NCBI GenBank assembly: GCA_958296105.1
Contig: OY282441.1
Coordinates: 2,563,800-2,627,799 of the forward strand
Length of the DNA stretch: 64,000 bases
Direction of reading: 5' to 3'
Source: an uncultured Dehalococcoidia bacterium
Lineage (GTDB): Bacteria > Chloroflexota > Dehalococcoidia > Lucifugimonadales > UBA1123
The notes under the pieces are model-generated. The model was not told the origin of the DNA and searched no databases. It saw only the letters and a program-made list of their open reading frames with translations. Below, piece after piece: positions 4,393 to 46,719 of the stretch. The position numbers and the translations under genes were made by a program. Positions within the stretch are counted from its first letter, which is position 1. The number at the start of each line of letters is the position of its first letter.

Positions 4393-4421
4393 AAAAATCC
4401 CGTCCAAGCAAGGGACGGGAT
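4393..4421 (-). terminator. intrinsic terminator of the T-box leader
   Basis: Minus strand ATCCCGTCC-CTTGC-TTGGACGGGAT followed by TTTTA: a 9-bp GC-rich stem with a U tract, directly downstream of the T-box sequence. It would be read through when the antiterminator forms with uncharged tRNA. Confidence 0.92.
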
Positions 4422-4690
4422 CGGTCATCTCATCGAGGATACCCCGCGGTACCACCCAAGTTGTCCGAAGCGTCGCTCCGGACCTCTCTTCGGCTTGGTA
4501 ACGGCGCCACCCCGTCCCGACTTACACAGAGAAAGCAAGAGCGCGAGCCGGCGCAGCCATGCGGCCGGCGCCGTGTCCACTCTGAGCCTTCCCCTTCTGC
4601 CGGGATGCTCCTGGGCGAGTTCCCGCGGATGCTGGCGCCGGACTTCCACCTGACTCCGGCTCTCTGCCTGCCCGCGCTCCGTGGTACTAC
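4393..4690 (-). promoter_or_regulatory. T-box leader (tRNA-sensing riboswitch) of the ilv-leu operon
   Basis: On the minus strand the leader contains the near-invariant T-box GGGTGGTACCGCGG (plus strand 4446-4457 core), 22 bases before a GC-rich terminator with a U run. Upstream are Stem I landmarks: AGAGAGCC with GGTGGAAG (about 4640-4665), then GGGAACTCGCCC (about 4615-4626), where CTC sits in the position expected of the specifier codon, i.e. tRNA-Leu. UGGU of the T-box would pair with the ACCA end of an uncharged tRNA and favour the antiterminator. The class is seen directly; the Leu specifier and the exact 5' end are inferred by eye without folding. Confidence 0.9.
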
Positions 4691-4818
4691 TCCCAATCAC
4701 AGCGAATATGATCGAATCGGTATGTAAGATGTTCTGAAATAGTAGCACCGCGCTGGAAATGGTGTCAACGCGAGTCGAGGATAGCGTCCGCGCTGGACGC
4801 CGCTGGAAGTGGCGGCGT

Positions 4819-6879
4819 TCAGCCCAGCCCGAACAGCCCGAACAGCTCCCGGCGGCTCATTCTGGTGGACAGGTCCAGCGAAACGTCGTCTATGATCTCG
4901 TCGAACACGCCCTGCTTGCGCTCCAAGATGCGGTCTATGCGCTCCTCTATGGTGTTGGCGCAGGAGTATTTGATGACGTTGACTTTGACCGTCTGCCCCA
5001 TTCGATAGCTGCGGTCTTCGGCTTGGCGCTCTACGGCGGGGTTCCACCAGCGATCCAGATGGAACACGTAGGAAGCCTCTTGCAGGTTCAGCCCAAGCCC
5101 GCCGGCGCGCAGGGACATGACCAGCGCCTTGTGTTCGTCTCGCGTCTTGAATCGCTCTATGAGGGCGGCGCGCTCGCTCTGAGGAGTATCGCCCGTGAAG
5201 GTGAGCGGCTCGAACTTGCGCAGGCGTCTCGCGGCGGCGGCAACGCCGGAGACCTCGTTGGTGTACTGCGAGAATATCAGCGCCCTGTGTCCCTGCGCCG
5301 TCAGCCGCTCCAGCCTGTCCACTATGTCATCGAGCTTGCTGGACTCTCCGGTTTCGGGGTCGAAGTTGCATATCTGCTTGAGGCGCGTGATCTGCTCCAG
5401 CACGTGCTGCACGGTGGCTTCTTCGCCCAGCGACCTCAGATAGACGATTCCATCGTGTTCGGCTTTGTCGTAGCTGGCGCGCTGCTTGGGGTGAAGGTCT
5501 ATGGGCGACATCTCTATCAGCTTGGGCGGCAGGTCGTCCAAGACCTCGCTCTTCTTGCGCCGAAGCTGAAGCTCTCGGTGGCGGCTCAGCAGCGCGGGGC
5601 CGGGAACGTAGCGCTTTGGGGGTGATCGCCCGTCGTGATCTACGAATTCGAGAATGGACGCCAGCTCTTCTTCGTGGTTCTCGATGGGCGTGCCTGTCAG
5701 CGCCCATGAGCGGCATCTCTTCAGCCCCTTCAGCGCTCGGCTGGTATCGTTGCGGTTCTTGACGCGCTGCGCCTCGTCAGCGATGACCACGTCCCAAGCC
5801 CTCCCCCGCACTTGCGAACGCTCGAAGTCCGAGCGCAGAGTGTCGTAGCTGACTAGAGTCACGTCCGTTCGCGCCGTCCACTGCCATGAGCGCTCGCGCG
5901 CCGCGCCGCGTATGATGATGGCGGAAAGCTCCGGCGCCCACTTCGTCATCTCGCGCCGCCACTGGTCGAGCAGGCTGGCGGGGGCGACTACCAGACACCT
6001 CCGCACTTCCCCGCGCTTTCTCAGAAGACGCAGGGCGCTTATCGCCTGCACCGTCTTTCCCAAGCCCATGTCGTCTGCCAGCAGAAGCCGCTTCATGCCC
6101 ACCAGCGCGCCCACGCCCTCTTTCTGGAAGGGCATCAGATCACCGAACAGATCGTCCGCTTCGTACTTGCGCGGCAGGCCGGGCGCGCCGTTGGCGGACG
6201 CGCGCCGCGACATCCGAGCGGGAGACGCCAGAATCGCCCACAGACGTTCGTACAGCGCGAGCTGACGCTTCTGCGCGGGCGCGGCTCGATCGGCTTGCCG
6301 CGCGCGCTCGGCGGAGTTGGGAACGGCAGCCTGCCCCGCGCGCTCCGGCGGTGGAAGCAGGCTGACGACTGTGGCGATGCCCGGAAGCGCCATCATTCCC
6401 AGAACGCGCGCGTCCGCGAACGCCTCTTCGATGCAGGCGGCCGCTCGGCGGAACGGTTCGGCAGGGTCTTCGCGCGTCATCAGCGCGTCGAGAAGCGCGC
6501 GCGACTCGGGGGCGGGGTCGGCAGCCCAGATCGCTTGGGGACGCTCATGGGATTCGGTCTGCGAGATCAGGCAGATGCGCAGTCCATCGCTCCGCCCAGC
6601 GTGAAACGCAGACGCTGGGGCTTCGTCCGCCAGCGCCAGCGCGAGCGTCGGCGTGTGGGGAGCGGAGCGGATCAGCGAATCGGCGACTTCGAGAATCGCG
6701 CCCTCGTCCGCGTTTCGGACAGCTGCGCGGGTGAAGCGGAACGCCAGCGGCTCGCCCTCGGCGGATGTCTCGAACAGCGCGGCGCGAATGCCGCCGCCCC
6801 CCTCCTCGCGGACGAATCTCAGCCACGCCACCGCTTCGGGGCGCTGATTTTCGCGCGAGGCGTCGAATGGGATGAGCAT
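4819..6879 (-). CDS. SNF2/Swi2-family DEAD/DEAH helicase, candidate defence component
   Basis: Double-stranded DNA translocase of the SNF2 family, 686 aa. Helicase motifs: Walker A ADDMGLGKT (about residue 270), Walker B IADEAQ (about 368), motif III-like LTGTPIENH, and the C-terminal lobe with GGLGLNL and RQAEDRSYRMGQ (about 626). The first 200 residues form an Ala-rich domain I do not recognise. It is the last of four same-strand genes (10033 to 4819), 40 bp after a BrxD/DUF2791 ATPase gene. An ATPase of that family plus a helicase is the core of Shango and is also seen in BREX loci, so a phage-defence role is inferred. A general chromatin or repair remodeller is the alternative. Confidence 0.9.
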   Translation of the reverse strand: MLIPFDASRENQRPEAVAWLRFVREEGGGGIRAALFETSAEGEPLAFRFTRAAVRNADEGAILEVADSLIRSAPHTPTLALALADEAPASAFHAGRSDGLRICLISQTESHERPQAIWAADPAPESRALLDALMTREDPAEPFRRAAACIEEAFADARVLGMMALPGIATVVSLLPPPERAGQAAVPNSAERARQADRAAPAQKRQLALYERLWAILASPARMSRRASANGAPGLPRKYEADDLFGDLMPFQKEGVGALVGMKRLLLADDMGLGKTVQAISALRLLRKRGEVRRCLVVAPASLLDQWRREMTKWAPELSAIIIRGAARERSWQWTARTDVTLVSYDTLRSDFERSQVRGRAWDVVIADEAQRVKNRNDTSRALKGLKRCRSWALTGTPIENHEEELASILEFVDHDGRSPPKRYVPGPALLSRHRELQLRRKKSEVLDDLPPKLIEMSPIDLHPKQRASYDKAEHDGIVYLRSLGEEATVQHVLEQITRLKQICNFDPETGESSKLDDIVDRLERLTAQGHRALIFSQYTNEVSGVAAAARRLRKFEPLTFTGDTPQSERAALIERFKTRDEHKALVMSLRAGGLGLNLQEASYVFHLDRWWNPAVERQAEDRSYRMGQTVKVNVIKYSCANTIEERIDRILERKQGVFDEIIDDVSLDLSTRMSRRELFGLFGLG

Positions 6880-6919
6880 TTAGGGAGCCGTCCGTATGCG
6901 CGGGTCGCGTGGGGTGGAG

Positions 6920-8194
6920 CTAATCTTCGTCTCTGGACTCGCGTTCCAGATCCCGGTTCTCTTCGTAGTCAGTTTGGTATTTGACCTCCTCCATGGTGTC
7001 GGGGTTTCCCAGATTCAGGCGCAGCAGGTCCCACTCGTTGATGGCGGCTCGGATCTTGTAGCGCATCCTCGCCTGAATCCCACCGCCTCCGGCGCCGCTT
7101 TGGAGCTTCGGAGCGTCCCATCGGTACGCCTCGCCGTATATCTGGCGCAGACTGTCCAGCGCTATGTTCACGTCCTCATCGCTGGGAGGGGCGAGCGCGA
7201 GACACTCGTTCTCCAGCAGTCTCATGCCAATTTCGGCGCTGGCGGCGATGTGTTCCCATCTGAGGTTGTTTTCGAGTCTTACCCTTATGTAGTCGCGGTC
7301 TTTCTTCTCGCCGTCCGGGCTGATGACGTATGAAGCGAAGTCGTCCGTCACCGCGCCAACTGCCACCAGCCCCGAATAGGTCTCGGATACCTGCCCCATC
7401 CAGCGCGCTGTCTCGGCGTAAGACCTGCCGCGCTGAAGTATGGAGTACGAGCCGATAAGCTCTATCTCGTCTATCAGAACCACCCAGCCCTTGTATCCCG
7501 CCGCCTTGATTAGCTCTAGCAGGAATCTCAGGCGCTGGGGAGGCAGGTCGGCGGCTTTGGGAGCGCGGAATGGGTAGTTGCTCAGCTGCCCTATCGCTCG
7601 CAGACCGCCCCTTAGCTCTGTGACCCTCAGCTGATCGCCTCCCCAGAAAGACTCTATCTTGGCGTTTAGCTCTAGGTCGCCGTATCTTTCGTGGACTATC
7701 AGACTCGCGGGGAACATCGGGTGAATCGCCCCTTCGTTCATGGCGCGGTTCGCCCACTCGAAGAAGGCGGCGTACTCTTGGGAGTTCGTATCGAGCGCCT
7801 GCCCCAGCTCCTCTATGAGCCTTCCCATGCGCCCCTGAACCTGTCCGGCTTCTACTGCGGACTTGAAGACTTTGCCCAGATCGTACAGGGGCGTCTCCTT
7901 GCTGATGACGACCTTGCTGCACACGAACCCTCTCGAAAGCGCCATGTTCTGGAAGTGAGCCAGCATATGAGATTTTCCAGTGCCGAAACCTCCGGACAGC
8001 AGCATACCGCTGGAGGATCTCGCGCCCACGCCGTTGGATTCCGTCTCGTCGAGCATATTCGTGAACGTGGTCGTGGCTCTCGGCTGCCTGCATCCCAGTA
8101 TGCGCACCGCTTCCCTGTTGGGGACGCCGCTTCTCAAGGCTTCCAGCGCAAGCCGGTGGTTCGTCGTGGCCAGACTATTGTCAGAGCTGATCAT
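6920..8194 (-). CDS. BrxD/DUF2791-family P-loop ATPase
   Basis: AAA-like ATPase of the DUF2791 (BREX BrxD; Shango SngB-like) family, 424 aa. Family hallmarks: N-terminal HRLALEALRSGVPNREAVR, Walker A GGFGTGKSHML (about residues 68-78), FVCSKVVISKETPLYDLGKV, Walker B GWVVLIDEIELIG followed by LQRGRSYAETARWMGQ. ATG 8194 is preceded by AAGGAG nine bases upstream, so I prefer it to an ATG at 8227 that would overlap the previous gene. An acidic C-tail closes the protein. It sits between a degenerate paralogue and a SNF2 helicase; the ATPase presumably energises or loads the helicase. Family call is firm, the defence role is inferred from context. Confidence 0.88.
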   Translation of the reverse strand: MISSDNSLATTNHRLALEALRSGVPNREAVRILGCRQPRATTTFTNMLDETESNGVGARSSSGMLLSGGFGTGKSHMLAHFQNMALSRGFVCSKVVISKETPLYDLGKVFKSAVEAGQVQGRMGRLIEELGQALDTNSQEYAAFFEWANRAMNEGAIHPMFPASLIVHERYGDLELNAKIESFWGGDQLRVTELRGGLRAIGQLSNYPFRAPKAADLPPQRLRFLLELIKAAGYKGWVVLIDEIELIGSYSILQRGRSYAETARWMGQVSETYSGLVAVGAVTDDFASYVISPDGEKKDRDYIRVRLENNLRWEHIAASAEIGMRLLENECLALAPPSDEDVNIALDSLRQIYGEAYRWDAPKLQSGAGGGGIQARMRYKIRAAINEWDLLRLNLGNPDTMEEVKYQTDYEENRDLERESRDED

Positions 8195-8210
8195 GCCGCG
8201 AATCTCCTTC

Positions 8211-9185
8211 TTAGGACAGCCGCACAAGGGAGGCTATTGGGTTTGCCAAGTTCTTGTCTCTGACGTCGTTCATTATTCTGGTCTGGAGCGCTTGGTAGAT
8301 GGCGTAGCTCCTTGGGTGGTCTTCGTCTACGAAGTCCGGGTTCGTCGTCACCACCATCAGCATTCCATTCAGCCTGTCCACGCTGTCCACGAATTCGCGC
8401 AAGAGCTCGTAGTGGTCCATCGTCATGGGCCTCGTATAGTAGCGCTTGCCGTCCCTGGGGTTGCGCGCGAGCGTTACGCGGGTGTTATCCAGCAAGATCA
8501 CCGTGCCGGAATATCCCACGAACTCGACCCAGTGCAGCGCGGACTCAATGAAGTACCGTGCCGTAGTGCGGTTGATGGGCGTGTGTATGGCGAAAGGGCG
8601 GACGTTGCCCATGCGTGCGCTGACGCCCGTCAGCCAGTTTATGATCGGCCGCACCGCGCCTAGCCCCTGAGTCATGCGCTCCTGAGACATGATGCAGAGA
8701 TGCGTCATCGCCACGCGAAAATCCTTGCTCATCTGAAGGTTCTTGAACACGCTGTCCTGTATGGGACGCGCCATTCTCATGGACAGGTAGGACGAGTCCA
8801 GGCCGTTGGCTGCGGCTATGGCGTCCAAGACGCTGCCGGAAGCGGCGGGGTCTATGCCATCCACGGCAAAGCCCCGTTCGGACGCCAGACGCAGAACCAT
8901 GCGATTCGCCAGAAGCCGCCAGTCTATCTGGCGCGCCATTGCGAAGAATATGTCCTGCGGCATGTAGACGCGGCTCGTGACGGCGTCCACGTCTACGCAG
9001 AGGTAATCCAGCTCCGAGCAGCGCGCCTTGACAGCGTCTCTCAGATCGGATCTGAGGCGGTCGGACGTTACGGCGAACTTGATGGACGCTCCGCCGTCCC
9101 TGATGAACGTGGTCAGGTACTCACTGTCGAGGAAGCCGAGCCACCTGTGAAGGGGGATGGCGTCGTCTGTCGCATTGGCGATCAT
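8211..9185 (-). CDS. degenerate BrxD-like protein without a P-loop
   Basis: 324 aa protein whose order of segments parallels the downstream BrxD ATPase: an N-terminal region, a FAVTSDRLRSDLRDAVKARC stretch where the ATPase has its Walker A, then a domain ending in the hydrophobic strand GTVILLDN resembling Walker B, and a C-terminal MLMVVTTNPDFV strand. No GxxxxGK[ST] is present, so it should not hydrolyse ATP in the usual way. ATG 9185 overlaps the preceding stop by four bases (ATGA), so expression is coupled. I infer a structural partner of the active ATPase, perhaps in a mixed ring. The relation to DUF2791 is by eye and needs a profile comparison. Confidence 0.72.
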   Translation of the reverse strand: MIANATDDAIPLHRWLGFLDSEYLTTFIRDGGASIKFAVTSDRLRSDLRDAVKARCSELDYLCVDVDAVTSRVYMPQDIFFAMARQIDWRLLANRMVLRLASERGFAVDGIDPAASGSVLDAIAAANGLDSSYLSMRMARPIQDSVFKNLQMSKDFRVAMTHLCIMSQERMTQGLGAVRPIINWLTGVSARMGNVRPFAIHTPINRTTARYFIESALHWVEFVGYSGTVILLDNTRVTLARNPRDGKRYYTRPMTMDHYELLREFVDSVDRLNGMLMVVTTNPDFVDEDHPRSYAIYQALQTRIMNDVRDKNLANPIASLVRLS

Positions 9186-9985
9186 TGGTCGTCCTTGGTG
9201 AATCTGATTCCGTAGTAGGTGATGCGCTGACCGTCCGGCGCGATGAAATGGAAGAGATCCGATCTGCGGCGCGTCCCAGTGGATGATGGGAAGTCCACGC
9301 GGTGTCCTCTTCTGGTCGTCCTGGGTCCGTTGGTCTCGATCAAGTACAGATCGCGCGCGAAGTCGCTGCGTCCGTACTGTCTCCCCATTCCCGGAAAGGC
9401 GGTGAGCAGGCGGTACACCCTCTCCAGCCGCACCACGCGCCCCACGCCGTTGGTCATTGGATTGGAAGCCGAAGACTCGCTTACTATGTCGGAATAGACA
9501 GTGTAGAGAGACTGGAGGAATCCCTGATACGAACCTCTCCCCGGCTTTTGCTGTTTCCTCAACAGCGTCTTCGCCAGACGGGAGGGCTTTATGTTTCGCT
9601 CCAGCTTCCCGTCTATTCTGACGGCGGGATCCCCGCTCTGGATGCTCACAACGGAGGGGTACGAGATCAGGCTTCCGTCCTGTTCGTATATCTTCAGCCC
9701 AATTTCCTGAGCGGCGGCGATGAGCTCGGCGGCGTAGTTTTCGGAGAGGTAGCGCTCTTCGCCCTCCTCGTCGAACGGCCAAGACTGGCTGACGTTGCGC
9801 GCCTCTTGGCGCAGAACGTTCAGCGCCTCCTCGAGGCTGTGCCGAGATCGCCTGATTGCGTCGATGTTCCCTCTCTGGGAAGCCCCCTTCAGCGCACTGG
9901 CGCGCTTCTTCAGATCGTCCGCCGCCTTTCGCGTCGACTCCGCCGCTCGTTCGGTATCGCTGAACGCTTGCTCGAAGCTAATCAA
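9182..9985 (-). CDS. coiled-coil protein, first gene of the BrxD/SNF2 operon
   Basis: About 267 aa, no recognised family. Residues 1-75 are charged and heptad-like (DTERAAESTRKAADDLKKRA), typical of a coiled coil; the rest is a globular alpha/beta domain with IYEQDGSLISYPSVVSI and, near the end, a basic RRGHRVDFPSSTGTRRRSDL segment that could bind nucleic acid. Start choice: AAGGAG at 9992-9997 lies six bases before TTG 9985 but abuts ATG 9991; an ATG at 10033 is excluded because the promoter lies inside that reading. It occupies the place of the TerB-like gene of Shango, but no TerB-like sequence is visible. It may be the target sensor or DNA-binding subunit; function unknown. Confidence 0.75.
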   Translation of the reverse strand: MISFEQAFSDTERAAESTRKAADDLKKRASALKGASQRGNIDAIRRSRHSLEEALNVLRQEARNVSQSWPFDEEGEERYLSENYAAELIAAAQEIGLKIYEQDGSLISYPSVVSIQSGDPAVRIDGKLERNIKPSRLAKTLLRKQQKPGRGSYQGFLQSLYTVYSDIVSESSASNPMTNGVGRVVRLERVYRLLTAFPGMGRQYGRSDFARDLYLIETNGPRTTRRGHRVDFPSSTGTRRRSDLFHFIAPDGQRITYYGIRFTKDDQ

Positions 9986-10004
9986 TATCATCTCCTTATA
10001 TGTA

Positions 10005-10033
10005 ATTATAGGTGTTTTCCCTATTTTTGTCAA
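10005..10033 (-). promoter_or_regulatory. consensus sigma-70-type promoter of the BrxD/SNF2 operon
   Basis: Minus strand TTGACA (10028-10033), 17-base A-rich spacer, TATAAT (10005-10010): a perfect match to the housekeeping consensus. Transcription would start only about 10-15 bases before the first codon, leaving little more than the AAGGAG ribosome site as leader. The spacer and leader are AT-rich against a GC-rich background. Confidence 0.88.
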
Positions 10034-11343: not shown

Positions 11344-13464
11344 ATGCGAACATCTTACAAACTCATGCTGTTGGCGGCGTTTGCCGTCTTGATTGCCGCG
11401 CTGACGCCCACAGGCTCGGCGCGCGCTCAGGGACTTCCAGACCGATTGACGGTGGTTATGATAGACCGCGAGTCGATCTCCCGAGACTCCGCCTCGCTGG
11501 ATCTGGCTAGGTCCGTGATCGGCTTGCTGCTCCACTTGAAGGAGGGGCAGGCGTTCACCTTCGTATTCACCGATGATCTGGAAAATACGATCGGCCCCAT
11601 GGAGACCGATGCCGACGGGTTCAGAGACCTGCGCGCGAGCGTCGAGACCGATATGGCGTCCGCGCCCCCGTCGGGCGCGCTCGACCTCGTAGGCTCCCTT
11701 GCGGAGATCTACAACTACCTGAAGGGACTCCACGTCGATTCCAAGACGACGATCTACCTCATCACGGGCAGCGAATCCCCTGCGGATTCCGCGGCGCAGA
11801 TGGAGAAGCTCCCCCCCGTCTTGAGGTTGTTCGTCGAAGAGGGATGGGCTTTCTTCAACGTCACGACCCCCGCGACGGATGCCGGCCTGAAGGCGGCGCT
11901 CGACGAGATCAGCGCAGAGACCGGGGGCGAGTCTTTCGACCTCGCCATGTCGGACGGCCTCGAATCCATGTCGGAGCGCGTCCTGCTCCTCGATGCGAGG
12001 GGAACCCTCATCGAAATCGGTCAGACTACGCTCGCCTCCGGCTCCGTGTTCGAGGTAGAGGTGGGAGTCGTTCCGGGCACAGACACGCTGCACATTCTGT
12101 TTTTCCGAGAAGCGCCGATCACCTCCTTCAGACTGAAGAACCCGGACGGAATCGAATCGTCTGCCGGAGACCGCGCTTCGTCTTCAGTGATCGACCTTCC
12201 CCACGTCGTCATATGGGAGATCGTAGATCCGGTTCCGGGGACGTGGCGAATGGAGGTTAGGGGAACCGGCGGTCGCATGTCCGCGCACATGTACGCATCG
12301 AACAGGTATAGAGTCGAGCTTCAGCCAACCGGCGCGACTCCCGTGGGTCAGCCGTTCGGCATGGTCGTGGCTGTGCTGGAGGGCGACAGGCGCGCGCCGG
12401 TGGACGGCGTGACCATGACCGCCAGAGTAATTAGCCCGAGCGGAAGGTCGGTGCTGTACGAGCTCGCCGACGGCGGAACCGGCGGCGACGCCGTGGCGCG
12501 CGACGGCTTCTTCTCGACCACGCTCCCACCCGTGACGGAGGCGGGCGTGTACGATGTCGAGCTCAGCCTCATGTGGCAGGGAATCGACCACGCCGTAACC
12601 AGCCACTCTTCGTTCCGCGCTAAGCAGTTCCCGAGCGTCGACGTAACCGCCGAGGATCTGGACATTCTCGAACCCGGCGCCCGCGTGAAGGTCGCGTCGC
12701 TGCTCGTCAACATAGACGGACAGCCGTTCTCGGTGCCTGTGGACGATCTGAGCGTATCGCTCGCAGGCCAGGGGGATCTGGGCAATGTGGAGATCGTCCC
12801 TACAAGGCTCGTCTCCGCGGGCGAGGCGTTCGCTTTCGACGTGTTCTACACGCCGCAGTCCCAGTCTCTGGCGACTCTGGTAATCAACCTGAATCTGGTG
12901 TACGCGGACAGCCCGTTCTCCTACTCCACCGAGTCGCTGGTGGTCTCGTCCATTCAGCCTGCCCCGACTCCCATACCCCCGACTCCCGCGCCCACGCCGG
13001 CGCCGGCGCCGACCACCGTTCCGCACCCGACGCCCGAGCCGGTCGAGTACCAGTCGCCCGCGCCCATGATCGCGCTCATCGTCATCGGCGCGCTGGCGGC
13101 CATAATCCTCGCGGCGCTGCTGTACTGGCTGACTAGGCCAACGCCGTTCGGATACTTCTACACTGAGGACGGACAGCTGGTCATCGACTTCCGCGCCCTT
13201 CGGCGGACGCCTTCGGACAACCTGTTCTCGCGCAGCCTCGTCTCCGGCGAGGAGCTTGCGCTGCCCGGATTCGAGGGAGTCGCCTTCGAGTTCCGATCCG
13301 GCGAGGTCTCGATAGTCAGCACACAGGTATCCTCCCACGATGTCAGGGTGAACAACCAGCCCGTGACGGACTCCATGCTCATTCAGGACAACAGCTGGAT
13401 CGGCGCGCTCGGCAGGCTCTACGTCTTCTCGTCGCAGCCGCAGGATCGGGACGAAGACCAGTAG
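11344..13464 (+). CDS. membrane-anchored VWA/Ig-domain protein with FHA-like C-terminus
   Basis: 706 aa single-pass protein. Signal peptide at 1-28 (LMLLAAFAVLIAALTPTG, cut near SARAQ). Residues 30-225 read as a von Willebrand A-like fold (LTVVMIDRESIS, then TTIYLITGSESP), although the first strand lacks a full DxSxS metal motif. Next are Ig-like domains of the kind paired with VWA proteins (LHILFFREAPITSFRL; GQPFGMVVAVLEGDRRAPVDG). A Pro/Thr stalk near 545-570 precedes a transmembrane helix (MIALIVIGALAAIILAALLYW). The cytosolic tail (VRVNNQPVTDSMLIQDNSWI) looks FHA-like. It may sense an external ligand and signal to a phosphothreonine partner inside; that is inference. A terminator follows the stop. 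Confidence 0.82.
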   Translation: MRTSYKLMLLAAFAVLIAALTPTGSARAQGLPDRLTVVMIDRESISRDSASLDLARSVIGLLLHLKEGQAFTFVFTDDLENTIGPMETDADGFRDLRASVETDMASAPPSGALDLVGSLAEIYNYLKGLHVDSKTTIYLITGSESPADSAAQMEKLPPVLRLFVEEGWAFFNVTTPATDAGLKAALDEISAETGGESFDLAMSDGLESMSERVLLLDARGTLIEIGQTTLASGSVFEVEVGVVPGTDTLHILFFREAPITSFRLKNPDGIESSAGDRASSSVIDLPHVVIWEIVDPVPGTWRMEVRGTGGRMSAHMYASNRYRVELQPTGATPVGQPFGMVVAVLEGDRRAPVDGVTMTARVISPSGRSVLYELADGGTGGDAVARDGFFSTTLPPVTEAGVYDVELSLMWQGIDHAVTSHSSFRAKQFPSVDVTAEDLDILEPGARVKVASLLVNIDGQPFSVPVDDLSVSLAGQGDLGNVEIVPTRLVSAGEAFAFDVFYTPQSQSLATLVINLNLVYADSPFSYSTESLVVSSIQPAPTPIPPTPAPTPAPAPTTVPHPTPEPVEYQSPAPMIALIVIGALAAIILAALLYWLTRPTPFGYFYTEDGQLVIDFRALRRTPSDNLFSRSLVSGEELALPGFEGVAFEFRSGEVSIVSTQVSSHDVRVNNQPVTDSMLIQDNSWIGALGRLYVFSSQPQDRDEDQ

Positions 13465-13494
13465 CCGCTCGATACGAGGCTGGCCGAACATGAC

Positions 13495-13524
13495 AAGGGG
13501 CGCTCCGCAAAGGAGCGCCCCTTC
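13495..13524. terminator. hairpin terminator between convergent genes
   Basis: AAGGGGCGCTCC-GCAAA-GGAGCGCCCCTT, a 12-bp perfect stem lying between the stops of the VWA protein gene and the convergent cyclophilin gene. The T-rich tail (CTTCGGGTTT) is weak, so it may act in both directions as a bidirectional stop. Confidence 0.8.
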
Positions 13525-13547
13525 GGGTTTCATGGTATCCCGCCTCG

Positions 13548-14288
13548 CTACTCCTCCACGATCTTGATGCTGGTCACCACGTCGCCCTCGCTGGTGGCGG
13601 TCGATGGGTCGCGCAGCGTGATGCCGTTCACCACGTCCATCCCGCTCGACACCTTGCCGAACACCGAGTGGCAGGAGACGCCGGACGCCGAGCAGCTCTT
13701 GGGCGACCCGTCCGGGTTCAGCCCGTCCAGCTGCGTAACCGCGCGGAACGTTATGAAGAACTGGCTGCCGTTGGTGCCGCTGCCGTTTCTCTCCCCAGCG
13801 TTCGCCATGGACATGATGCCCTCGCTGTCGTGGCGCAGGTCAGGGTGAAACTCGTTGTCGAATCGGTATCCCGGCCCGCCGGTGCCTGTGCCAGTCGGGT
13901 CGCCGGACTGCGCCATGAAGTTGGCAAGCACGCGGTGGAACGTCACGCCGTCGTAGTAGCCTTCCCGCGCCAGAAAGACGAAGTTGTTCACCGTCATCGG
14001 TACTTTGTCCGCGTACAGCTCCACCTCGAACTTATCGCCCTTCGCCAGATTGAACACGGCGGTGTACTTCTTGGAGCTGTCTATCGTCATTGCCGGCGGA
14101 GAGTCCCACTGCTTGGGGCCGACGCGCTCGGGCATGGGAGTGGGATAAGCTATGGTGGGCTGGGGCTGCGTCGGCGGAGTGGGAGCGGACGGCTCGGACG
14201 TCGAAGCGCGCTCCTCGTCGGGAGAGGAGCAGGCGGCGAGCGCAGCTGCAAGCGCGACGAGCGCGACGACCGAAATCTTGAGTATCAT
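13548..14288 (-). CDS. lipoprotein peptidyl-prolyl cis-trans isomerase (cyclophilin type)
   Basis: Folding catalyst acting outside the membrane. 246 aa. Lipoprotein signal [20 protein letters not shown] with Cys at about residue 20, then a Pro/Thr-rich linker and a cyclophilin domain: [38 protein letters not shown] (catalytic Arg and the QxGD core), [38 protein letters not shown] 14288 has GGAGG six bases upstream; longer frames upstream lack support. An insertion with three cysteines ([15 protein letters not shown]) lies before the last strands and could form a disulfide in the extracytoplasmic space. Confidence 0.95.
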
Positions 14289-14522
14289 GTTCTGCCTCCA
14301 GTTTGGGGTTGGGGAGTGAGCCGCGCCAAGCGAGCGGCGCGCGAATTTCGGCAACATTCTACGCAGGCGGACTCTGGTTTGTCACCCTGCGGCTCACGAA
14401 AGACCCATCTCCCAGACATGGACGCGATGGGAGCAGGGGCAGCCGTGAACCTCGTGTTCGCAGCGGCCTGCGCAGCGGCGGCGTCCCAGCGGCGGACGCT
14501 GCGGCGGAAAGGCGCAGTCTGG

Positions 14523-15140
14523 CTAGTCGATCTCCATGAACCGCCGCCAGTCCCGCGTTCTGACCGATTCGGAAACCTCTTCGTACTGCCGCGCCAAGTG
14601 CGTTCCCGCCACCAGCGCGGACATGGCGAGGCACAAGACTATCTGGCCTGTCGACTGCCCCGTGCCTATCGTCAGCGCGTTCAGGGCAAAGAATATCCAC
14701 GCCACGGAGAGGACGGGCTTTCTGGTCGCCGCGAGCATCAGCAGACCGGAGACAGCGGAAAGCATGGTGATCTGCCAGAGCATGAACGCGGAGATGCCCA
14801 GCGCCGTCGCCGCGCCCTTGCCTCCCCTGAAACGCAGCGCGGGAGAGAAGTTGTGGCCAAGAGTCGCCATCAGCGCGGCGGCGTAGATCCATACGTCGGC
14901 GAGAGACAGCGTCTGCGCGACTGCCACCGCCAATATGCCCTTGCCCGCGTCCGCCAGCAGCACGAGAACGCCAATCGGCGCGCCAAGCCGCCGCGCCGCG
15001 TTGAGCGCGCCCGGATTGCCGCTGCCGAACCCTCGTATGTCTCCCTTGGAGAGCAGCCGCCCCGCTATGTACGCCGTGGGAATGGCCCCCAGCAGGAACG
15101 CCGCCACGAGACTGGCAACCCCCGCCAGCGCCTCGCTCAC
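14523..15140 (-). CDS. plsY: glycerol-3-phosphate acyltransferase PlsY
   Basis: Integral membrane enzyme that transfers acyl groups from acyl-phosphate to glycerol-3-phosphate, first step of phospholipid synthesis. 205 aa, normal length. The three PlsY motifs are visible: GAIPTAYIAGRLLSKGDIRG followed by GSGNPGALNAAR, LADAGKGILAV, and GHNFSPALRFRGGKGAATALG. Starts at GTG 15140, overlapping the aroQ-like stop by four bases (GTGA), so the two are translationally coupled. At least five hydrophobic segments are seen. Confidence 0.93.
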   Translation of the reverse strand: MSEALAGVASLVAAFLLGAIPTAYIAGRLLSKGDIRGFGSGNPGALNAARRLGAPIGVLVLLADAGKGILAVAVAQTLSLADVWIYAAALMATLGHNFSPALRFRGGKGAATALGISAFMLWQITMLSAVSGLLMLAATRKPVLSVAWIFFALNALTIGTGQSTGQIVLCLAMSALVAGTHLARQYEEVSESVRTRDWRRFMEID

Positions 15141-38068: not shown

Positions 38069-40969
38069 ATGACCCCTGTAATCCGCCCGCACTTTTCGCG
38101 CTGCGTCACAATTCCATGCTTGGCAGCACTCATCGGGATATTCTTCCTATCCCTCATCGTCATTCCTGAAACGTTTGCAGATACGCCCACGCCTCCCGCT
38201 CCGTACATTACTAGCGGCCCAGTCATCGCCTCTCAGCCAAGCACAGACTCGGACGGTGACGGCGTAAAAGATACCTATGGACCAAGCGAGGTCATCCGGG
38301 TCGAAGTCGGATTTAGCGAACAGGTCTGTGGCACGGGATCGATTTCCCTAACGTTCCAGACAGGCAACGGCTCAGCGGCAGTGAAGGATGCGAATTACTC
38401 CGGCTGCGGTCCCAACGGTATCTCATTCAGCTATCTGGTTGCCAAGACGGACACAGACGATGACGGAATCAGTATCTCCGCCAATTCCATATCGTTCGCT
38501 ACCTACGACGGAGTAGTTCCGGACTCTGCACACGAAGCGGTCTCATCCCAACCCAACCAGAAAGTCAGAGGCAGTCTCCCGGATACTTTCCCGCCATACA
38601 TCTATGGTGGAGCGCCGCGCATCATAAATAGCCCACTGTCTGGAGATACCTATGGCAGGGGAGAGGCGATACAGATACGGGCTGAGTTCAACGAGGATGT
38701 CCTTGTCGATACTGGAGGCGGACTGCCATCTCTGGGATTGGAAATAGGCAGCGAGACCCACAGAGTGCAGTATGACGCAGAGGAGAGCGAAGCCACGCGC
38801 CTAGTCTTCATATACACGGTACAGGAAGGGGACAGGGATGATGACGGAACAATTTGGGTTCCTGCTGACAGCCTTCGCGTACCGTCGGGCGCGTCCATCA
38901 CCGATCTCGCCGGAAACAACGCGAGACTGTCTTGGGAAGTAAGCTCAGGGAGCTATTTCAAGGTCGATGGTACCGCTCCTACGCCTACGCCTGTGTCAAC
39001 TTCGACCCCAGCCACGCTCACACCTACGCCTGTGTCAACTTCGACCCCAGCCACGACCACATCATCCGGGAAGATAGCGTTTCAGTCTTATCGGGACGGG
39101 AACAGGGAGATATACGTGATGAATGCGGACGGTTCGGGAGTAACCCGTCTCACGGATAGTCCTGGGCATGATGGGACCCCGTCTTGGTCTCCGGACGGAC
39201 GGCGCATAGCGTTCGATTCCATTCGGGACGGGAACGCTGAGATCTACGTGATGAACGCGGACGGATCGGGAGTCACCCGTCTCACTGTTACTCCTGAGGA
39301 GAATCAGCACCCTGCCTGGTCTCCGGACGGACGGCGCATAGCGTTTCAGTCTTATCGGGACGGGAACAGGGAGATCTACGTGATGAACGCAGACGGCTCG
39401 GGAGCCACCCGTCTCACGAATCATCCTGAGGAGGATGGGTTCCCGTCCTGGTCTCCGGACGGACGACGCATAGCGTTTACTCGGGCTCTGGCCGGGAAGG
39501 GTGAGATACACGTGATGAAGGCAGACGGATCGGGAGTCACCCGTCTCACTGATACTCCCGAGGCTAATCAGTACCCGTCCTGGTCTCCGGACGGACGGAA
39601 GATAGCGTTTGCTTCTGATCGGGACGGAAACAGGAACATCTACGTGATGAAGGCAGACGGATCGGGAGTCACCCGTCTCACCGATCATACTGCGTGGGAT
39701 GGGAGCACCCCTGCCTGGTCTCCGGACGGACGGCGCATAGCGTTTCAGTCTCGTCGGGACGGGAACGATGAGATCTACGTGATGAACGCGGACGGATCGG
39801 GAGTCGTCACCCGTCTCACTGATCATTCTGGGTTCAATCGTAACCCGGCTTGGACCGGTCAGATCACACCTACGCCTACGTCTGTGTCAACTTCGACTCC
39901 AGCCACGACCACATCATCCGGGAAGATAGCGTTTCAGTCTTATCGGGACGGGAACAGGGAGATCTACGTGATGAAGGCTGACGGCTCGGGAGTCACCCGT
40001 CTCACGGATAGTCCTGGGCATGATGGGACCCCGTCTTGGTCTCCGGACGGACGGCGCATAGCGTTCGATTCCATTCGGGACGGGAACGCTGAGATCTACG
40101 TGATGAACGCGGACGGTTCGGGAGTCACCCGTCTCACGAATCATCCTGAGGAGAATCAGCACCCTGCCTGGTCTCCGGACGGACGGCGCATAGCGTTTCA
40201 GTCTTATCGGGACGGGAACAGGGAGATCTACGTGATGAAGGCAGACGGCTCGGGAGTCACCCGTCTCACGAATCATCCTGAGGAGGATGGGTTCCCGTCC
40301 TGGTCTCCGGACGGACGACGCATAGCGTTTACTCGGGCTCTGGCCGGGAAGGGTGAGATACACGTGATGAAGGCAGACGGCTCGGGAGTCACCCGTCTCA
40401 CTGATACTCCCGAGGCTAATCAGTACCCGTCCTGGTCTCCGGACGGACGGAAGATAGCGTTTGCTTCTGATCGGGACGGAAACAGGAACATCTACGTGAT
40501 GAAGGCAGACGGATCTGGAGTCACCCGCCTCACTGATCATACTGCGTGGGACGGGAGCACCCCTGCCTGGTCTCCGGACAGTCGGCGCATAGCGTTTCAG
40601 TCTCGTCGGGACGGGAACGATGAGATCTACGTGATGAACGCGGACGGTTCTGGAGTCGTCACCCGTCTCACTGATCATTCTGGGTTCAATCGTAACCCGG
40701 CCTGGATCGGTCAACTCACACCTACGCCTGTGTCAACTTCGACTCCAGCCACGCTCACACCTACGCCTGTGCCGACTTCGACTCCAGCCACGACCACACC
40801 TACGCCTGTGCCAACTCCGACTCCAACGCCCATGGCTACACTCGCGCACACACTACCCCCCGCCCCCACCCACGCCGGAGAGAGGCTTCTTCGCTCCGTG
40901 AACCAATATGCCTTTCGAGCCAGACATCGCGGCAGGCGTCACTGGCGATCATCCTCGTCGGGGCGCTGA
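38069..40969 (+). CDS. secreted double six-bladed PD40 propeller protein (copy B)
   Basis: 966 aa, open throughout. Signal peptide with the same sequence type as copy A ([20 protein letters not shown]). Residues 40-300 form two Ig-like/SWM-type domains (VIRVEVGFSEQVCGTGSISL; QIRAEFNEDVLVDTGG). Then two blocks of six PD40 units ([15 protein letters not shown]...[11 protein letters not shown]), each a likely six-bladed propeller, the second being an 852-bp tandem duplicate. Pro/Thr linkers separate the parts. The C-terminal 30 residues read through a PH-gene remnant in the wrong frame and end without the membrane anchor of copy A, so it is probably released or held otherwise. Ligand unknown; TolB-like propellers bind proteins or sugars. 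Confidence 0.85.
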   Translation: MTPVIRPHFSRCVTIPCLAALIGIFFLSLIVIPETFADTPTPPAPYITSGPVIASQPSTDSDGDGVKDTYGPSEVIRVEVGFSEQVCGTGSISLTFQTGNGSAAVKDANYSGCGPNGISFSYLVAKTDTDDDGISISANSISFATYDGVVPDSAHEAVSSQPNQKVRGSLPDTFPPYIYGGAPRIINSPLSGDTYGRGEAIQIRAEFNEDVLVDTGGGLPSLGLEIGSETHRVQYDAEESEATRLVFIYTVQEGDRDDDGTIWVPADSLRVPSGASITDLAGNNARLSWEVSSGSYFKVDGTAPTPTPVSTSTPATLTPTPVSTSTPATTTSSGKIAFQSYRDGNREIYVMNADGSGVTRLTDSPGHDGTPSWSPDGRRIAFDSIRDGNAEIYVMNADGSGVTRLTVTPEENQHPAWSPDGRRIAFQSYRDGNREIYVMNADGSGATRLTNHPEEDGFPSWSPDGRRIAFTRALAGKGEIHVMKADGSGVTRLTDTPEANQYPSWSPDGRKIAFASDRDGNRNIYVMKADGSGVTRLTDHTAWDGSTPAWSPDGRRIAFQSRRDGNDEIYVMNADGSGVVTRLTDHSGFNRNPAWTGQITPTPTSVSTSTPATTTSSGKIAFQSYRDGNREIYVMKADGSGVTRLTDSPGHDGTPSWSPDGRRIAFDSIRDGNAEIYVMNADGSGVTRLTNHPEENQHPAWSPDGRRIAFQSYRDGNREIYVMKADGSGVTRLTNHPEEDGFPSWSPDGRRIAFTRALAGKGEIHVMKADGSGVTRLTDTPEANQYPSWSPDGRKIAFASDRDGNRNIYVMKADGSGVTRLTDHTAWDGSTPAWSPDSRRIAFQSRRDGNDEIYVMNADGSGVVTRLTDHSGFNRNPAWIGQLTPTPVSTSTPATLTPTPVPTSTPATTTPTPVPTPTPTPMATLAHTLPPAPTHAGERLLRSVNQYAFRARHRGRRHWRSSSSGR
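39061..40764 (+). repeat. 852-bp tandem duplication inside the propeller gene
   Basis: ATCATCCGGGAAGATAGCGT begins at 39061 and again at 39913, and both 852-bp (284-codon) blocks stay nearly identical to about 40764. Only scattered substitutions (for example ACTGTTACTCC against ACGAATCATCC) separate them, so the duplication is recent. Confidence 0.92.
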
Positions 40970-43132: not shown

Positions 43133-44485
43133 ATGTCGTGTCAGAACCATGTGTGCGCGGATCTGATCTTGGTTGGCTGCGTGAAGAGCAAGGTCGACTA
43201 CCCAGCTCAAGCCAGATGCCTATACAAATCGCCACTCTGGAATTATCGCCGAGAGTACGCGGAATGTCTTGGCTGTGCTTGGTACATCCTCAGCGCCAAA
43301 CACGGGCTGCTCGATCCCCTCTCGGAGATCGAGCCGTATGACTTGGCGCTGTCAGACATGTCGGCGGCAGAGCGTCGAGAATGGTCTGAGCGTGTCCTTG
43401 CCGATCTGGTCAAGAAGCATCCATCGCTGTCGGGAAAAGTCGTCGAGATTCATGCAGGGAAGCCTTATGCCGAACACGGGCTCGAAGACGGACTGATCAA
43501 GATGGGGGCGACCGTTTGTCGACCGCTGAAGCATATGCGTGGCATCGGTTCACAAATCGCATGGTATAAAGAGCGGCTGGCTGCTGCGTGTTCCCATGCA
43601 CGCAGAAATGCCCGGCTGGCCGAAAAGATCGCTGGTGATTTCTACGGTGACGGGTTCGATCTGTCCGCGAGAGACGACCCGCCGAGCGGCGCATGGACGC
43701 AAATGCCGGAAGTCAAAGCTGTGCGCAAGCTGCGCGATTTGGGCGCGTCGGATCGTGAGGTGCGCCTGTTCCTGACCTTCATCTCAGCCATGGACCGCGC
43801 GCGAGACGCCAACCGCCTGTGGTGCGCGGGATACTGCCTATTCAAGAGTCGCCCGGAGCTTTTCGAGCCTGACATAGCGTCGTCCATCGAGATCGAGACA
43901 CTTCGCAAGCTGCTGTCCGAGAGTGGGGTTAGCCAGCGACACGAACAAGACGCGAAAGCATGGAGCAAAATTGCCCGCAGCCTGAGCTCTGGACATGGGC
44001 CGGTGCGCAGGGTCATCGACGACGGCATTGGAGACGCCTGCAAGCTGCTCGAGGATCTGCGGAGCGAATCTAGCAGCGGGTGTCCTCGATTTCCGCTTCT
44101 CAAAGGTCGCAAAATCGGGCCGATGTGGGTGCGGATGATTGCGTGGCCCGGCGGGGCGAAGATCGACCGTATAGGCGTCATCCCCGTTGCTGTCGACGTG
44201 CATGTGCGTCGCGTTACCGAGAACTTGGGTGTGACGGACACCCGACACCTTCGGCTCGAACAGGCTAGGCCGTGCATCCAGTCCGCTTGGCACAAAGCGG
44301 TTTCGTTGGCAAAGATCGGCGGGCCGCCAGAAATCGAAGGCACGTGCGCGGCGCTCGATCCTGCGCTGTGGTTCTTTGGCAAGTATGGCTGTAGCCACTG
44401 CGAGAAGGTGGGCAGTCGCGTACCCATTGGCAGAGCTTGCGACAGCTGTCAGTTTCCCTTTCCACCTGAAACCGAGCAGTGTTGA
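43133..44485 (+). CDS. DUF6884 protein fused to an HhH-GPD DNA glycosylase-like domain
   Basis: 450 aa, two domains. Residues 1-145: DUF6884-type (LILVGCVKSKVDYPAQA, CAWYILSAKHGLLDPLSEIE, GKVVEIHAGKPYAEHGL), a YaaA/7-deazaguanine-enzyme-related family. Residues 190-440: a helical domain with a helix-hairpin-helix (FPLLKGRKIGPMWVRMIAW) followed by PVAVDVHVRRVTENLG, matching the VDTHVxR catalytic-Asp strand of HhH-GPD glycosylases. It ends in CSHCEK...CDSCQF, a four-Cys metal site. Together this suggests recognition and excision or exchange of a modified base in DNA. It lies 500 bp before a restriction-modification pair. The domain pairing, to my knowledge, is unusual; function is inferred. Confidence 0.8.
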   Translation: MSCQNHVCADLILVGCVKSKVDYPAQARCLYKSPLWNYRREYAECLGCAWYILSAKHGLLDPLSEIEPYDLALSDMSAAERREWSERVLADLVKKHPSLSGKVVEIHAGKPYAEHGLEDGLIKMGATVCRPLKHMRGIGSQIAWYKERLAAACSHARRNARLAEKIAGDFYGDGFDLSARDDPPSGAWTQMPEVKAVRKLRDLGASDREVRLFLTFISAMDRARDANRLWCAGYCLFKSRPELFEPDIASSIEIETLRKLLSESGVSQRHEQDAKAWSKIARSLSSGHGPVRRVIDDGIGDACKLLEDLRSESSSGCPRFPLLKGRKIGPMWVRMIAWPGGAKIDRIGVIPVAVDVHVRRVTENLGVTDTRHLRLEQARPCIQSAWHKAVSLAKIGGPPEIEGTCAALDPALWFFGKYGCSHCEKVGSRVPIGRACDSCQFPFPPETEQC

Positions 44486-45019: not shown

Positions 45020-46717
45020 ATGGTTGCAGCTGACAAGAATCGAGCTAGTGGCAGCCGTGACGATGGCGCAGGGCAAACCCGCGATGGTCACAAGCTACAG
45101 CCCGCTTTAATCCCATCCATTGAGTTCGATGCAGTCAATGAAACCATGACCGTATCCCAAGCGAGCGTCTGGGCGTCGAAGCGGACGGGACGCAATGTGA
45201 CACCATCCAACATCTCGTACCTAATCAAATATGGTCGTATCCATGGAATTGGCAAGAACGTCTCTTTGATGGTCAGCGTTGCCGACTTGGAGCGATACTA
45301 CCAATCCCGTTCTGGTCATAGCGAAGACGTTTACAGGCGCAGGCTTGGCGACGATCTAAACTGGCATCTGTCATTCGAGCAGTACAAAGAGTCTGAAACC
45401 ACCAAGCATGTTCACCGCCTGCATCCGTACAAGGGGAAATTCATCCCTCAACTGGTCGAGTACTTCATAGACTCCCATACAGATGAATTCAAGAGAGAAG
45501 CCTGTTTCTCTCCCGGAGACATCATCCTAGATCCATTTTGTGGCAGCGGCACGACATTAGTCCAAGCCAACGAATCAGGCATACACGCCATCGGAATTGA
45601 CGTGTCGCTGTTCAACTCGATGATTAGCAACTTGAAACTGTCCAATGTCAAACTGAACGATCTGGCAACGGCTGCTATGCTTGTCGAAAACTGCATAGCA
45701 GCCAACATAAATGGACAGAAGGCGCGGAGCTTCGAGGAAGATCTACTTGCCGAGCTCAAAACGTTCAACACGAAGTTCTTCCCGTCACCGGATTTTCGGC
45801 GGCAAGTGCGAAATGGTTCGATTGACCATGACCATTACACCACTGATAAAGATTCGCAGTTTCAGGCGATATACTATCGTCTGCTCGAAGAACACGATGT
45901 CAGCAGTGACATCGATGCAAACAGCGAAACTTTCCTCGATAGCTGGTACCACGAGTCGGTACGCAGTGAGATAGACAGCGCAATCAGCTTCATAGACGGA
46001 TATAGAGATCCGCTGTTGCGCGACATCCTGCGTATGATACTAAGTCGCACGATTCGATCATCTCGCGCCACTACGCACTATGATTTGGCTACACTGATAC
46101 GGCCCGTTACCGAGACGTACTACTGCGGAAAACACAGCAAAATATGCAAACCCCTCTTTTCCATGCTCAATTGGTGGAAGCGTTACTCCAAAGATACCGT
46201 AAGGCGAATGGCGCAGTTCAAGAGACTGCGTACTGACACATTCCAAGTTTGCTTGACCGGAGACTCTCGTGAGATAGACATATTCTCACATTTGCACGGT
46301 GTGAATAGCGGACTTGCCAGTTTGTCGCGCCAACAAAAGATTCGTGGGATATTCTCGAGTCCCCCATATGTCGGTCTGATCGACTATCACGATCAGCACG
46401 CCTACGCCTATGAGTTGTTCGGCCTGCCTCGAAACGACAGCGCTGAAATCGGACCGATGAGCTCTGGGCGCGGACGGCAGGCGCGAGACATGTACGTTGA
46501 AAGCATTGCCAGCGTACTCGTGAATTGCCAGAAATACATGATCCCTGACTACGACGCCTTCCTCGTGGCAAACGATAGATTCGGACTCTATCCGCGCATT
46601 GCCGAACTCGCCGGAATGGAAATAAAAAGAGAGTACAAGCGTCCAGTGCTGAATCGCGCGGAAGGTGACAAGGGCGCGTACTCGGAAACGATTTTCCATA
46701 TGCGAAGAAAGGACTAG
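45020..46717 (+). CDS. Type II DNA methyltransferase (amino-methyltransferase, likely m4C) with N-terminal HTH
   Basis: 565 aa. An N-terminal MerR-like DNA-binding segment (TVSQASVWASKRTGRNVTPS; HGIGKNVSLMVSVADLERYY) precedes the methyltransferase. AdoMet motif I DPFCGSGTTLVQANESGIHA (about residue 172) comes before catalytic motif IV SSPPYVGLIDYHDQHAY (about 448). SPPY favours N4-cytosine, although N6-adenine cannot be excluded. A roughly 250-residue helical insertion between them is the target-recognition region. ATG 45020 follows GAGAG. The restriction enzyme gene starts 2 bp after the stop. Codon use and AT content differ from the GC-rich surroundings, indicating transfer. Confidence 0.88.
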   Translation: MVAADKNRASGSRDDGAGQTRDGHKLQPALIPSIEFDAVNETMTVSQASVWASKRTGRNVTPSNISYLIKYGRIHGIGKNVSLMVSVADLERYYQSRSGHSEDVYRRRLGDDLNWHLSFEQYKESETTKHVHRLHPYKGKFIPQLVEYFIDSHTDEFKREACFSPGDIILDPFCGSGTTLVQANESGIHAIGIDVSLFNSMISNLKLSNVKLNDLATAAMLVENCIAANINGQKARSFEEDLLAELKTFNTKFFPSPDFRRQVRNGSIDHDHYTTDKDSQFQAIYYRLLEEHDVSSDIDANSETFLDSWYHESVRSEIDSAISFIDGYRDPLLRDILRMILSRTIRSSRATTHYDLATLIRPVTETYYCGKHSKICKPLFSMLNWWKRYSKDTVRRMAQFKRLRTDTFQVCLTGDSREIDIFSHLHGVNSGLASLSRQQKIRGIFSSPPYVGLIDYHDQHAYAYELFGLPRNDSAEIGPMSSGRGRQARDMYVESIASVLVNCQKYMIPDYDAFLVANDRFGLYPRIAELAGMEIKREYKRPVLNRAEGDKGAYSETIFHMRRKD

Positions 46718-46719
46718 GC

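What the first reader, a model, noticed from the sequence alone, without database searches (positions are those of the whole stretch)
4819..10033. Candidate undescribed defence operon: coiled-coil protein, P-loop-less BrxD-like protein, BrxD ATPase, SNF2 helicase
Four genes, tightly spaced (4-bp overlap, 16 bp, 40 bp), in a single operon. The BrxD/DUF2791 ATPase plus SNF2/DEAD-like helicase is the core shared with Shango (TerB-like SngA, ATPase SngB, helicase SngC) and BREX. Here the TerB-like gene is absent. Instead there are a coiled-coil protein with a basic C-terminal domain and a second BrxD-like protein lacking its P-loop. No methyltransferase or PglZ is present, so it is not BREX. This subunit set is, as far as I know, not a named system.
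Basis: partly seen in the sequence, partly recalled or inferred. Interest (0 to 1): 0.87.

Follow-up and report, generated by a model that had tools for sequence, protein, structure and literature searches.

The report
BrxD-like ATPase pair with SNF2 motor
A small, mobile four-gene bacterial operon makes one live and one dead copy of a DNA-loading ATPase, a probable DNA-binding partner and a DNA-tracking motor; it is probably an unnamed anti-virus defence system, common in sponge symbionts and related to BREX and Shango, but its defence role is inferred and not shown.

Summary
Genes A (9182-9985), B (8211-9185), C (6920-8194) and D (4819-6879) form one minus-strand operon behind a perfect TTGACA-17-TATAAT promoter.

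A, B and C are a conserved unit: A lies beside B in 57 of 59 testable loci, C in 59 of 59. SNF2 gene D follows in only 35 of 50, and is a fusion of a small protein 'E' to SNF2. B is a decayed BrxD-type AAA+ protein: none of 53 aligned copies has a P-loop, but the fold is kept and it is under purifying selection. One relative (L144) still has the P-loop. C is the live ATPase. A is a coiled-coil hairpin plus a probable winged helix.

The cassette is sporadic, crosses phyla, fills a segment absent from same-genus genomes, and is common in sponge-symbiont genomes. A sister tetrad, with both ATPases intact and an Lhr/BrxHI-like helicase, sits on plasmids, beside type-2 BREX, and inside a DUF499-DUF1156-PLD anti-phage locus.

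Best reading: an unnamed DNA-targeting defence system (ORC-like loader plus translocase), neither Shango nor BREX. Defence is inferred; PADLOC genes are not enriched in its flanks.

The parts
10005..10033 (-). sigma-70 promoter, TTGACA-17-TATAAT, of the operon
   Evidence: only exact match in the window, expected 0.01; 12 of 12 matches
9182..9985 (-). gene A, 267 aa: coiled-coil hairpin, small beta-rich domain, probable winged helix
   Evidence: AlphaFold2 pLDDT 92.8; no family hit; beside B in 57/59 loci; C-terminal part aligned with the sister protein of L129, hhalign E 2e-4
9788..9976 (-). A residues 4-66, antiparallel coiled-coil hairpin
   Evidence: predicted helices 4-38 and 41-66
9242..9529 (-). 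A residues 153-248, probable winged-helix domain (inferred)
   Evidence: helices 153-171, 187-194, 206-219 then strands 228-231 and 245-248; conserved F209, R211, D212, Y214, G227; no PDB match to this part
8211..9185 (-). gene B, 324 aa: catalytically dead BrxD-like AAA+ protein
   Evidence: PF10923 4e-9; pLDDT 94.1, ORC/Cdc6/TnsC-like fold, Z about 10; P-loop in 0 of 53 aligned rows; dN/dS 0.06-0.19
9063..9095 (-). B residues 31-41, GGASIKFAVTS: first strand with the P-loop lost
   Evidence: alignment with L144, which reads SQIKFVVGRPGSGKTHLL here
8478..8504 (-). B residues 228-236, TVILLDNTR: Walker B position with Asp-Asn in place of Asp-Glu
   Evidence: alignment A3
6920..8194 (-). gene C, 424 aa: live BrxD-like AAA+ ATPase
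   Evidence: PF10923 8.5e-17; P-loop in 45 of 46 rows, invariant D242 E243
7970..7993 (-). C residues 68-75, Walker A GGFGTGKS
   Evidence: invariant G71, G73, K74, S75
4819..6879 (-). gene D, 686 aa: E domain fused to an SNF2 motor
   Evidence: SNF2-rel 1.5e-44, Helicase_C 9.5e-20; present in 35 of 50 loci
6400..6879 (-). D residues 1-160, the E domain, function unknown
   Evidence: a separate ORF between C and SNF2 in 9 loci; no Pfam hit

Best explanation
A horizontally moving, DNA-targeting anti-phage or anti-plasmid system. A is the DNA- or partner-binding scaffold (coiled coil plus probable winged helix). B (dead) and C (live) are ORC/Cdc6/TnsC-type AAA+ subunits that form a mixed assembly, in which only C hydrolyses ATP and B is a structural or sensing partner. 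This assembly forms on invading DNA and loads or switches on the SNF2 translocase D through D's E domain. D then tracks along the invader and blocks its replication or expression, or clears the way for a nuclease encoded elsewhere. Shown here: gene content, conservation, B's fold and lost P-loop, purifying selection, mobility, and the BREX-linked sister tetrads. Inferred: DNA binding by A, the B-C assembly, loading of D, and the defence outcome.
For: A-B-C collinear in nearly all loci with dN/dS about 0.06-0.26, also in loci without D. B is an AAA+ of ORC/Cdc6/TnsC type; C's weak profile hits in the PDB are TnsC, BrxC and helicase loaders. E is a separate gene in 9 loci and fused to SNF2 here, which argues that they work together. 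Sporadic: 9 of 147 genomes of the order and none of the 7 same-genus or same-family relatives. The operon fills a segment where same-genus synteny stops at about 4768 and resumes at about 10429. Phyla mix in the C tree. Sister tetrads lie directly after PglZ-BrxD-BrxHI on a conjugative plasmid, on a plasmid next to AbiEi/AbiEii, and between DUF499 and DUF1156/PLD anti-phage genes.
Against: No experiment. Flanking genes of the window's own family are no richer in PADLOC matches than random stretches of the same genomes (64 against 76 families). There is no nuclease in the cassette. Fifteen of 50 loci lack D, so D cannot be the only output. Neither phage records nor IMG/VR carry B, and the plasmid search found only one distant sister.
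Confidence: 0.55

Rival explanations
1. A regulator or genome-maintenance module: an SNF2 motor of the RapA or pilus-regulating type, with an ORC-like ATPase pair, acting on the host's own transcription, repair or replication.
For: D's SNF2 domain scores highest with broad SNF2 profiles, among them a pilus-regulating Snf2 family and SCO1167-type helicases; no nuclease; no defence enrichment in the flanks.
Against: Sporadic presence, movement across phyla, absence from same-genus genomes and a lineage-specific insertion do not suit housekeeping. Sister tetrads are embedded in BREX and DUF499/DUF1156 loci.
Confidence: 0.18
2. A transfer or transposition module: B and C act as a TnsC-like target selector, or as a maintenance factor of a mobile element.
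For: B's fold is close to TnsC (Z 9.8, tied with ORC); C's best PDB profile hit is TnsC (E 0.006); sister tetrads are found on plasmids.
Against: No transposase, integrase or relaxase recurs in the flanks; flanking genes differ from locus to locus.
Confidence: 0.1
3. A Shango or type-2 BREX variant: the same machine with a swapped helicase and a lost TerB subunit.
For: C matches BrxD (6e-15) and weakly SngB (9e-6); the sister helicases match BrxHI and SngC strongly.
Against: No TerB, no PglZ, no BrxC, no methyltransferase; D is SNF2 rather than Lhr-like; there are two BrxD-type subunits plus protein A, which neither system is known to have.
Confidence: 0.12

Closest known systems
Sister tetrad, e.g. 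Desulfomonile tiedjei pDESTI.01 DESTI_RS28080-28095 and Aulosira laxa NIES50_70940-70970
   Same: four genes in the order A-like, BrxD-like, BrxD-like, SF2 helicase; A-like C-terminus related; B and C equivalents related
   Different: both ATPases keep the P-loop; the helicase is Lhr/BrxHI-like, not SNF2; no name found for it either
Type-2 BREX BrxD-BrxHI dyad
   Same: BrxD-family ORC/Cdc6 ATPase next to an SF2 helicase; helicase loading proposed (PMC12839542)
   Different: no PglZ, PglW, BrxC or methyltransferase; SNF2 in place of BrxHI; second, dead ATPase and protein A
Shango (SngABC)
   Same: BrxD-family ATPase plus helicase in a small operon
   Different: no TerB protein; SNF2 in place of the Lhr-like helicase; two BrxD-type subunits
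Zorya type I ZorD and DpdE
   Same: best PADLOC matches of D (2.7e-78 and 5e-65), over the SNF2 motor
   Different: partner genes of those systems are absent; D has its own N-terminal E domain
ORC/Cdc6 and TnsC AAA+ proteins
   Same: fold of B (Z 10.1 and 9.8)
   Different: B has no P-loop and no C-terminal lid

Membership tests
Shango | TerB-domain protein SngA | tested here: not met
   no TerB match in any of the four proteins
Shango | BrxD-type ATPase SngB | tested here: inconclusive
   C matches SngB at 9e-6 over 48 residues, BrxD better at 6e-15
Shango | Lhr-like helicase SngC | tested here: not met
   D is SNF2; SngC is not among the 25 best PADLOC rows for D
BREX | PglZ, BrxC and methyltransferase in the locus | tested here: not met
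   none among the four genes; flanks are ilvBNC and unrelated genes; PF10923 occurs in the genome only in B and C; PglZ itself was not searched genome-wide
BrxC_BrxD family PF10923 | profile match above the curated cut-off | tested here: met
   B 36.2 and C 61.6 bits against 22.2
BrxC_BrxD family PF10923 | intact Walker A | tested here: not met
   for B: 0 of 53 rows; C has it in 45 of 46
Zorya type I | ZorA and ZorB motor proteins | tested here: not met
   A, B and C match no ZorA or ZorB model
Sister tetrad (unnamed) | A-like, two BrxD-like, SF2 helicase in this order | tested here: met
Sister tetrad (unnamed) | P-loop in both ATPases and Lhr-like helicase | tested here: not met
   B has no P-loop, D is SNF2
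Anti-phage system | protection against phage or plasmid | not testable with these tools
   needs an experiment

The most novel reading that the evidence does not exclude
A-B-C is a stand-alone DNA-sensing ATPase chassis, with a dead ORC-like subunit as obligatory partner, onto which different outputs are plugged: E-SNF2 in most loci, and perhaps an XPB-like ResIII helicase (L080) or McrBC (L040), while the sister branch uses an Lhr-like helicase. It would be a defence family of its own beside BREX and Shango.
Probability: 0.3. Interest if true: 0.8.

Novelty: new variant of a known kind. Interest (0 to 1): 0.62.

Why it matters
BrxD-type ATPases recur in BREX, Shango and related systems, but what they do is unknown; helicase loading is only proposed. 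Here the family has split into a live and a dead subunit with a fixed partner, in a cassette of about 5.2 kb, with a relative (L144) that still holds the ancestral P-loop and a sister branch with a different helicase. That makes the loader idea directly testable with few genes. It also points to a candidate defence unit shared across phyla in sponge symbionts, which are reported to be rich in defence genes (PMC5649159, PMC8163846), and which PADLOC 2.0 does not recognise.

Tried and rejected
Defence-island test: 147 flanking proteins against 147 from random stretches of some of the same genomes gave 64 and 76 PADLOC families at 1e-15, so no enrichment is claimed. The control happened to hold CRISPR, Druantia and Dnd-like genes, so it is a noisy test. 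A as a PD-(D/E)xK nuclease: E87, D103, D125 and K127 have a suggestive spacing and MutH appears in Foldseek, but at E about 0.9, and K127 is Arg in 8 of 55 rows; not pursued. PDB search with A: only the coiled-coil hairpin matches, so its C-terminal part is effectively untested. Viral contigs with B and with A, phage records with B and with C: no relatives. Looking for an exact empty site: in same-genus genomes the two flanking blocks lie on different contigs or at distant places, so this is a synteny breakpoint, not a clean empty site. D orthologue elsewhere in D-less genomes: only SNF2 proteins of 38% identity or less over any long stretch. Phylogeny: bins can hold foreign contigs, so single cross-phylum cases such as L032 and L034 (91% DNA identity in B) are not leaned on. 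A search centred on the Desulfomonile record was not accepted by the tool.

Full report
What is there. Four minus-strand genes are read in the order A (9182-9985), B (8211-9185), C (6920-8194), D (4819-6879), with a 4-bp overlap, 16 bp and 40 bp between them. A starts at TTG 9985, seven bases or so behind a GGAG, or at the in-frame ATG 9991. B and C both pass the Pfam cut-off of BrxC_BrxD; D is SNF2; A has no convincing family. In the whole 3.18-Mb genome PF10923 is found only in B and C.

Conservation. In eight relatives of the same order, A, B and C are collinear at 35-63% identity, and D follows in seven. A scan of named bacterial and archaeal genomes gave 63 loci. Where the contig is long enough, A lies directly upstream of B in 57 of 59, C directly downstream in 59 of 59, and D within 2.5 kb in 35 of 50. 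About 15 further hits from a phylum-wide and another class-wide sample keep the same order. Genomes without D next to C have no close orthologue elsewhere: the best SNF2 matches there reach 38% identity over long stretches, against 64-72% in two control genomes that have D. Several of these are single-chromosome assemblies (L038, L040, L047). A, B and C in D-less pairs are still under purifying selection (dN/dS 0.15-0.26 in L033/L036 and L043/L069). So the invariant unit is A-B-C, and D is usual but optional.

D is a fusion. The first 160 residues of D (E) are a separate ORF between C and the SNF2 gene in nine loci. E has no Pfam match. In single loci the place of D is taken by other genes: an XPB-like ResIII helicase directly behind C in L080, and McrB plus McrC behind C in L040. 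These are single cases and could be chance neighbours.

B is a dead ATPase, not a pseudogene. AlphaFold2 from 53 sequences gave pLDDT 94.1. Foldseek alone gave no significant PDB match (best E 0.013); the VIA second look ranks archaeal ORC2, TnsC and Orc1/Cdc6 among its best (Z 9.0-10.1, p97 and HslU also at 9-10), so 'AAA+ of ORC/TnsC type' is supported and finer placement is not. Profile comparison of B with C gives E 2e-4 over 206 columns. No B row of 53 has GxxxxGK[ST]; 45 of 46 C rows do. At the Walker B place most B proteins read Asp-Asn. dN/dS of B is 0.06-0.19, as low as for C. The relative L144 keeps the P-loop: it reads SQIKFVVGRPGSGKTHLL where B reads ASIKFAVTS, and it has more of the C-terminal lid. 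Compared with the sister proteins, B has lost its N-terminal segment, the P-loop and the lid.

A. The model (pLDDT 92.8) has a long helical hairpin (4-66), a small beta-rich part (100-129) and helices followed by strands (153-264). The order of elements at 153-248 fits a winged helix, and this stretch aligns with the A-like protein of Aulosira (hhalign E 2e-4) and, by eye, with those of other sister loci. No solved structure matches this part; the search was filled by the hairpin. DNA binding by A is therefore an inference.

The sister tetrad. The best plasmid hit of B led to Aulosira laxa AP018310: PglZ, BrxD and BrxHI of a type-2 BREX operon, followed at once by an A-like gene, two BrxD-like genes and an Lhr-like helicase. 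Its B and C equivalents match our profiles at 9e-13 and 1e-13. The same four genes lie on Desulfomonile tiedjei pDESTI.01 next to AbiEi/AbiEii, and in several Chloroflexota. In L205 the tetrad sits between a DUF499_antiphage gene and DUF1156_antiphage plus phospholipD_antiphage genes; in L150 it precedes a DUF1156 gene (these three matches are below the equivalog cut-offs and so mean relatives of those families). Both ATPases of the sister tetrad have a P-loop. This is the strongest tie to defence, and it is a tie of the sister, not of the window's own branch.

Mobility and ecology. Nine of 147 genomes of the order carry B, and none of the seven same-genus or same-family genomes. DNA similarity to three same-genus genomes runs from ilvC to about 4768, at the ilvB promoter, and resumes at about 10429; the operon fills the gap. 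In the C tree, phyla are mixed: Chloroflexota needs at least 6 changes on starred branches, Pseudomonadota and Acidobacteriota 3 each; bins may hold foreign contigs, but complete chromosomes take part. Many of the closer loci are from sponge-symbiont bins: the MPNP, MPMP, MPMO and MPNC records are Aplysina aerophoba bins (PMC5649159), and jk18x bins are from Caribbean Ircinia (PMC9531527). Other labels look like sponge projects but were not traced. The more distant loci (31-41%) come mostly from other habitats by their titles.

Defence neighbours. Of 147 flanking proteins, some match PADLOC models (type I methyltransferase, a methyl-directed restriction enzyme, type I CRISPR parts), but a control of 147 proteins from random stretches of some of the same genomes gave as many. 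The flank test neither supports nor refutes defence.

How it most likely works. B and C as ORC-like subunits, one dead and one live, resemble the mixed rings of replication initiators; the NAR 2026 survey proposes that BrxD loads BrxHI on DNA (PMC12839542). By analogy, A brings the B-C assembly to invading DNA, C's ATP cycle loads or triggers D through E, and D's translocation stops the invader. Each of these steps is inferred. Confidence that it is a defence system of this general kind: 0.55.

Known or new. No held paper describes the set; PADLOC 2.0 has no model for A or for the set. It fails defining features of Shango (TerB, Lhr-like helicase) and BREX (PglZ, BrxC, methyltransferase). It is best filed as a new variant of the BrxD-plus-helicase kind. 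DefenseFinder and recent machine-learning candidate lists were not available, so 'unnamed' means unnamed in what could be searched.

Noticed in passing
window 4408-4709 (-): T-box leader (RF00230, 97 bits) before ilvB, with a promoter at 4768-4739; same-genus synteny resumes here.
   Followed up: partly
window 45020-47499 (+): N6/N4 DNA methylase next to a TdeIII-type restriction endonuclease in the low-G+C part of the window, beside a DUF6884 gene at 43133-44485: a second, ordinary defence locus.
   Followed up: partly
window 38069-40969 (+): 966-aa protein of PD40/WD40-like repeats with a near-exact internal duplication.
   Followed up: no
L020 / L049 (13856-15337): second, shorter SNF2 gene (67% identical to D over residues 207-685) directly behind D.
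   Followed up: no
L017 / L052 (about 12850-14600): D is split after residue 480 by about 1.9 kb that holds a 508-aa ORF on the other strand, looking like an insertion.
   Followed up: no
L130 (9570-11624) and L153 (11743-13719): PLD-domain proteins of similar size, convergent with the cassette, next to a D-less A-B-C locus and next to a sister tetrad.
   Followed up: partly
L022, L027, L028, L065, upstream of A: a recurring gene, in L022 matching a type II methyl-directed restriction enzyme and an HNH model, just upstream of A in four Caldilineaceae.
   Followed up: partly
L032 and L034: A and B 88-91% identical in DNA between records labelled Nitrospirota and Entotheonella; recent transfer or a misbinned 3.8-kb contig.
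   Followed up: no
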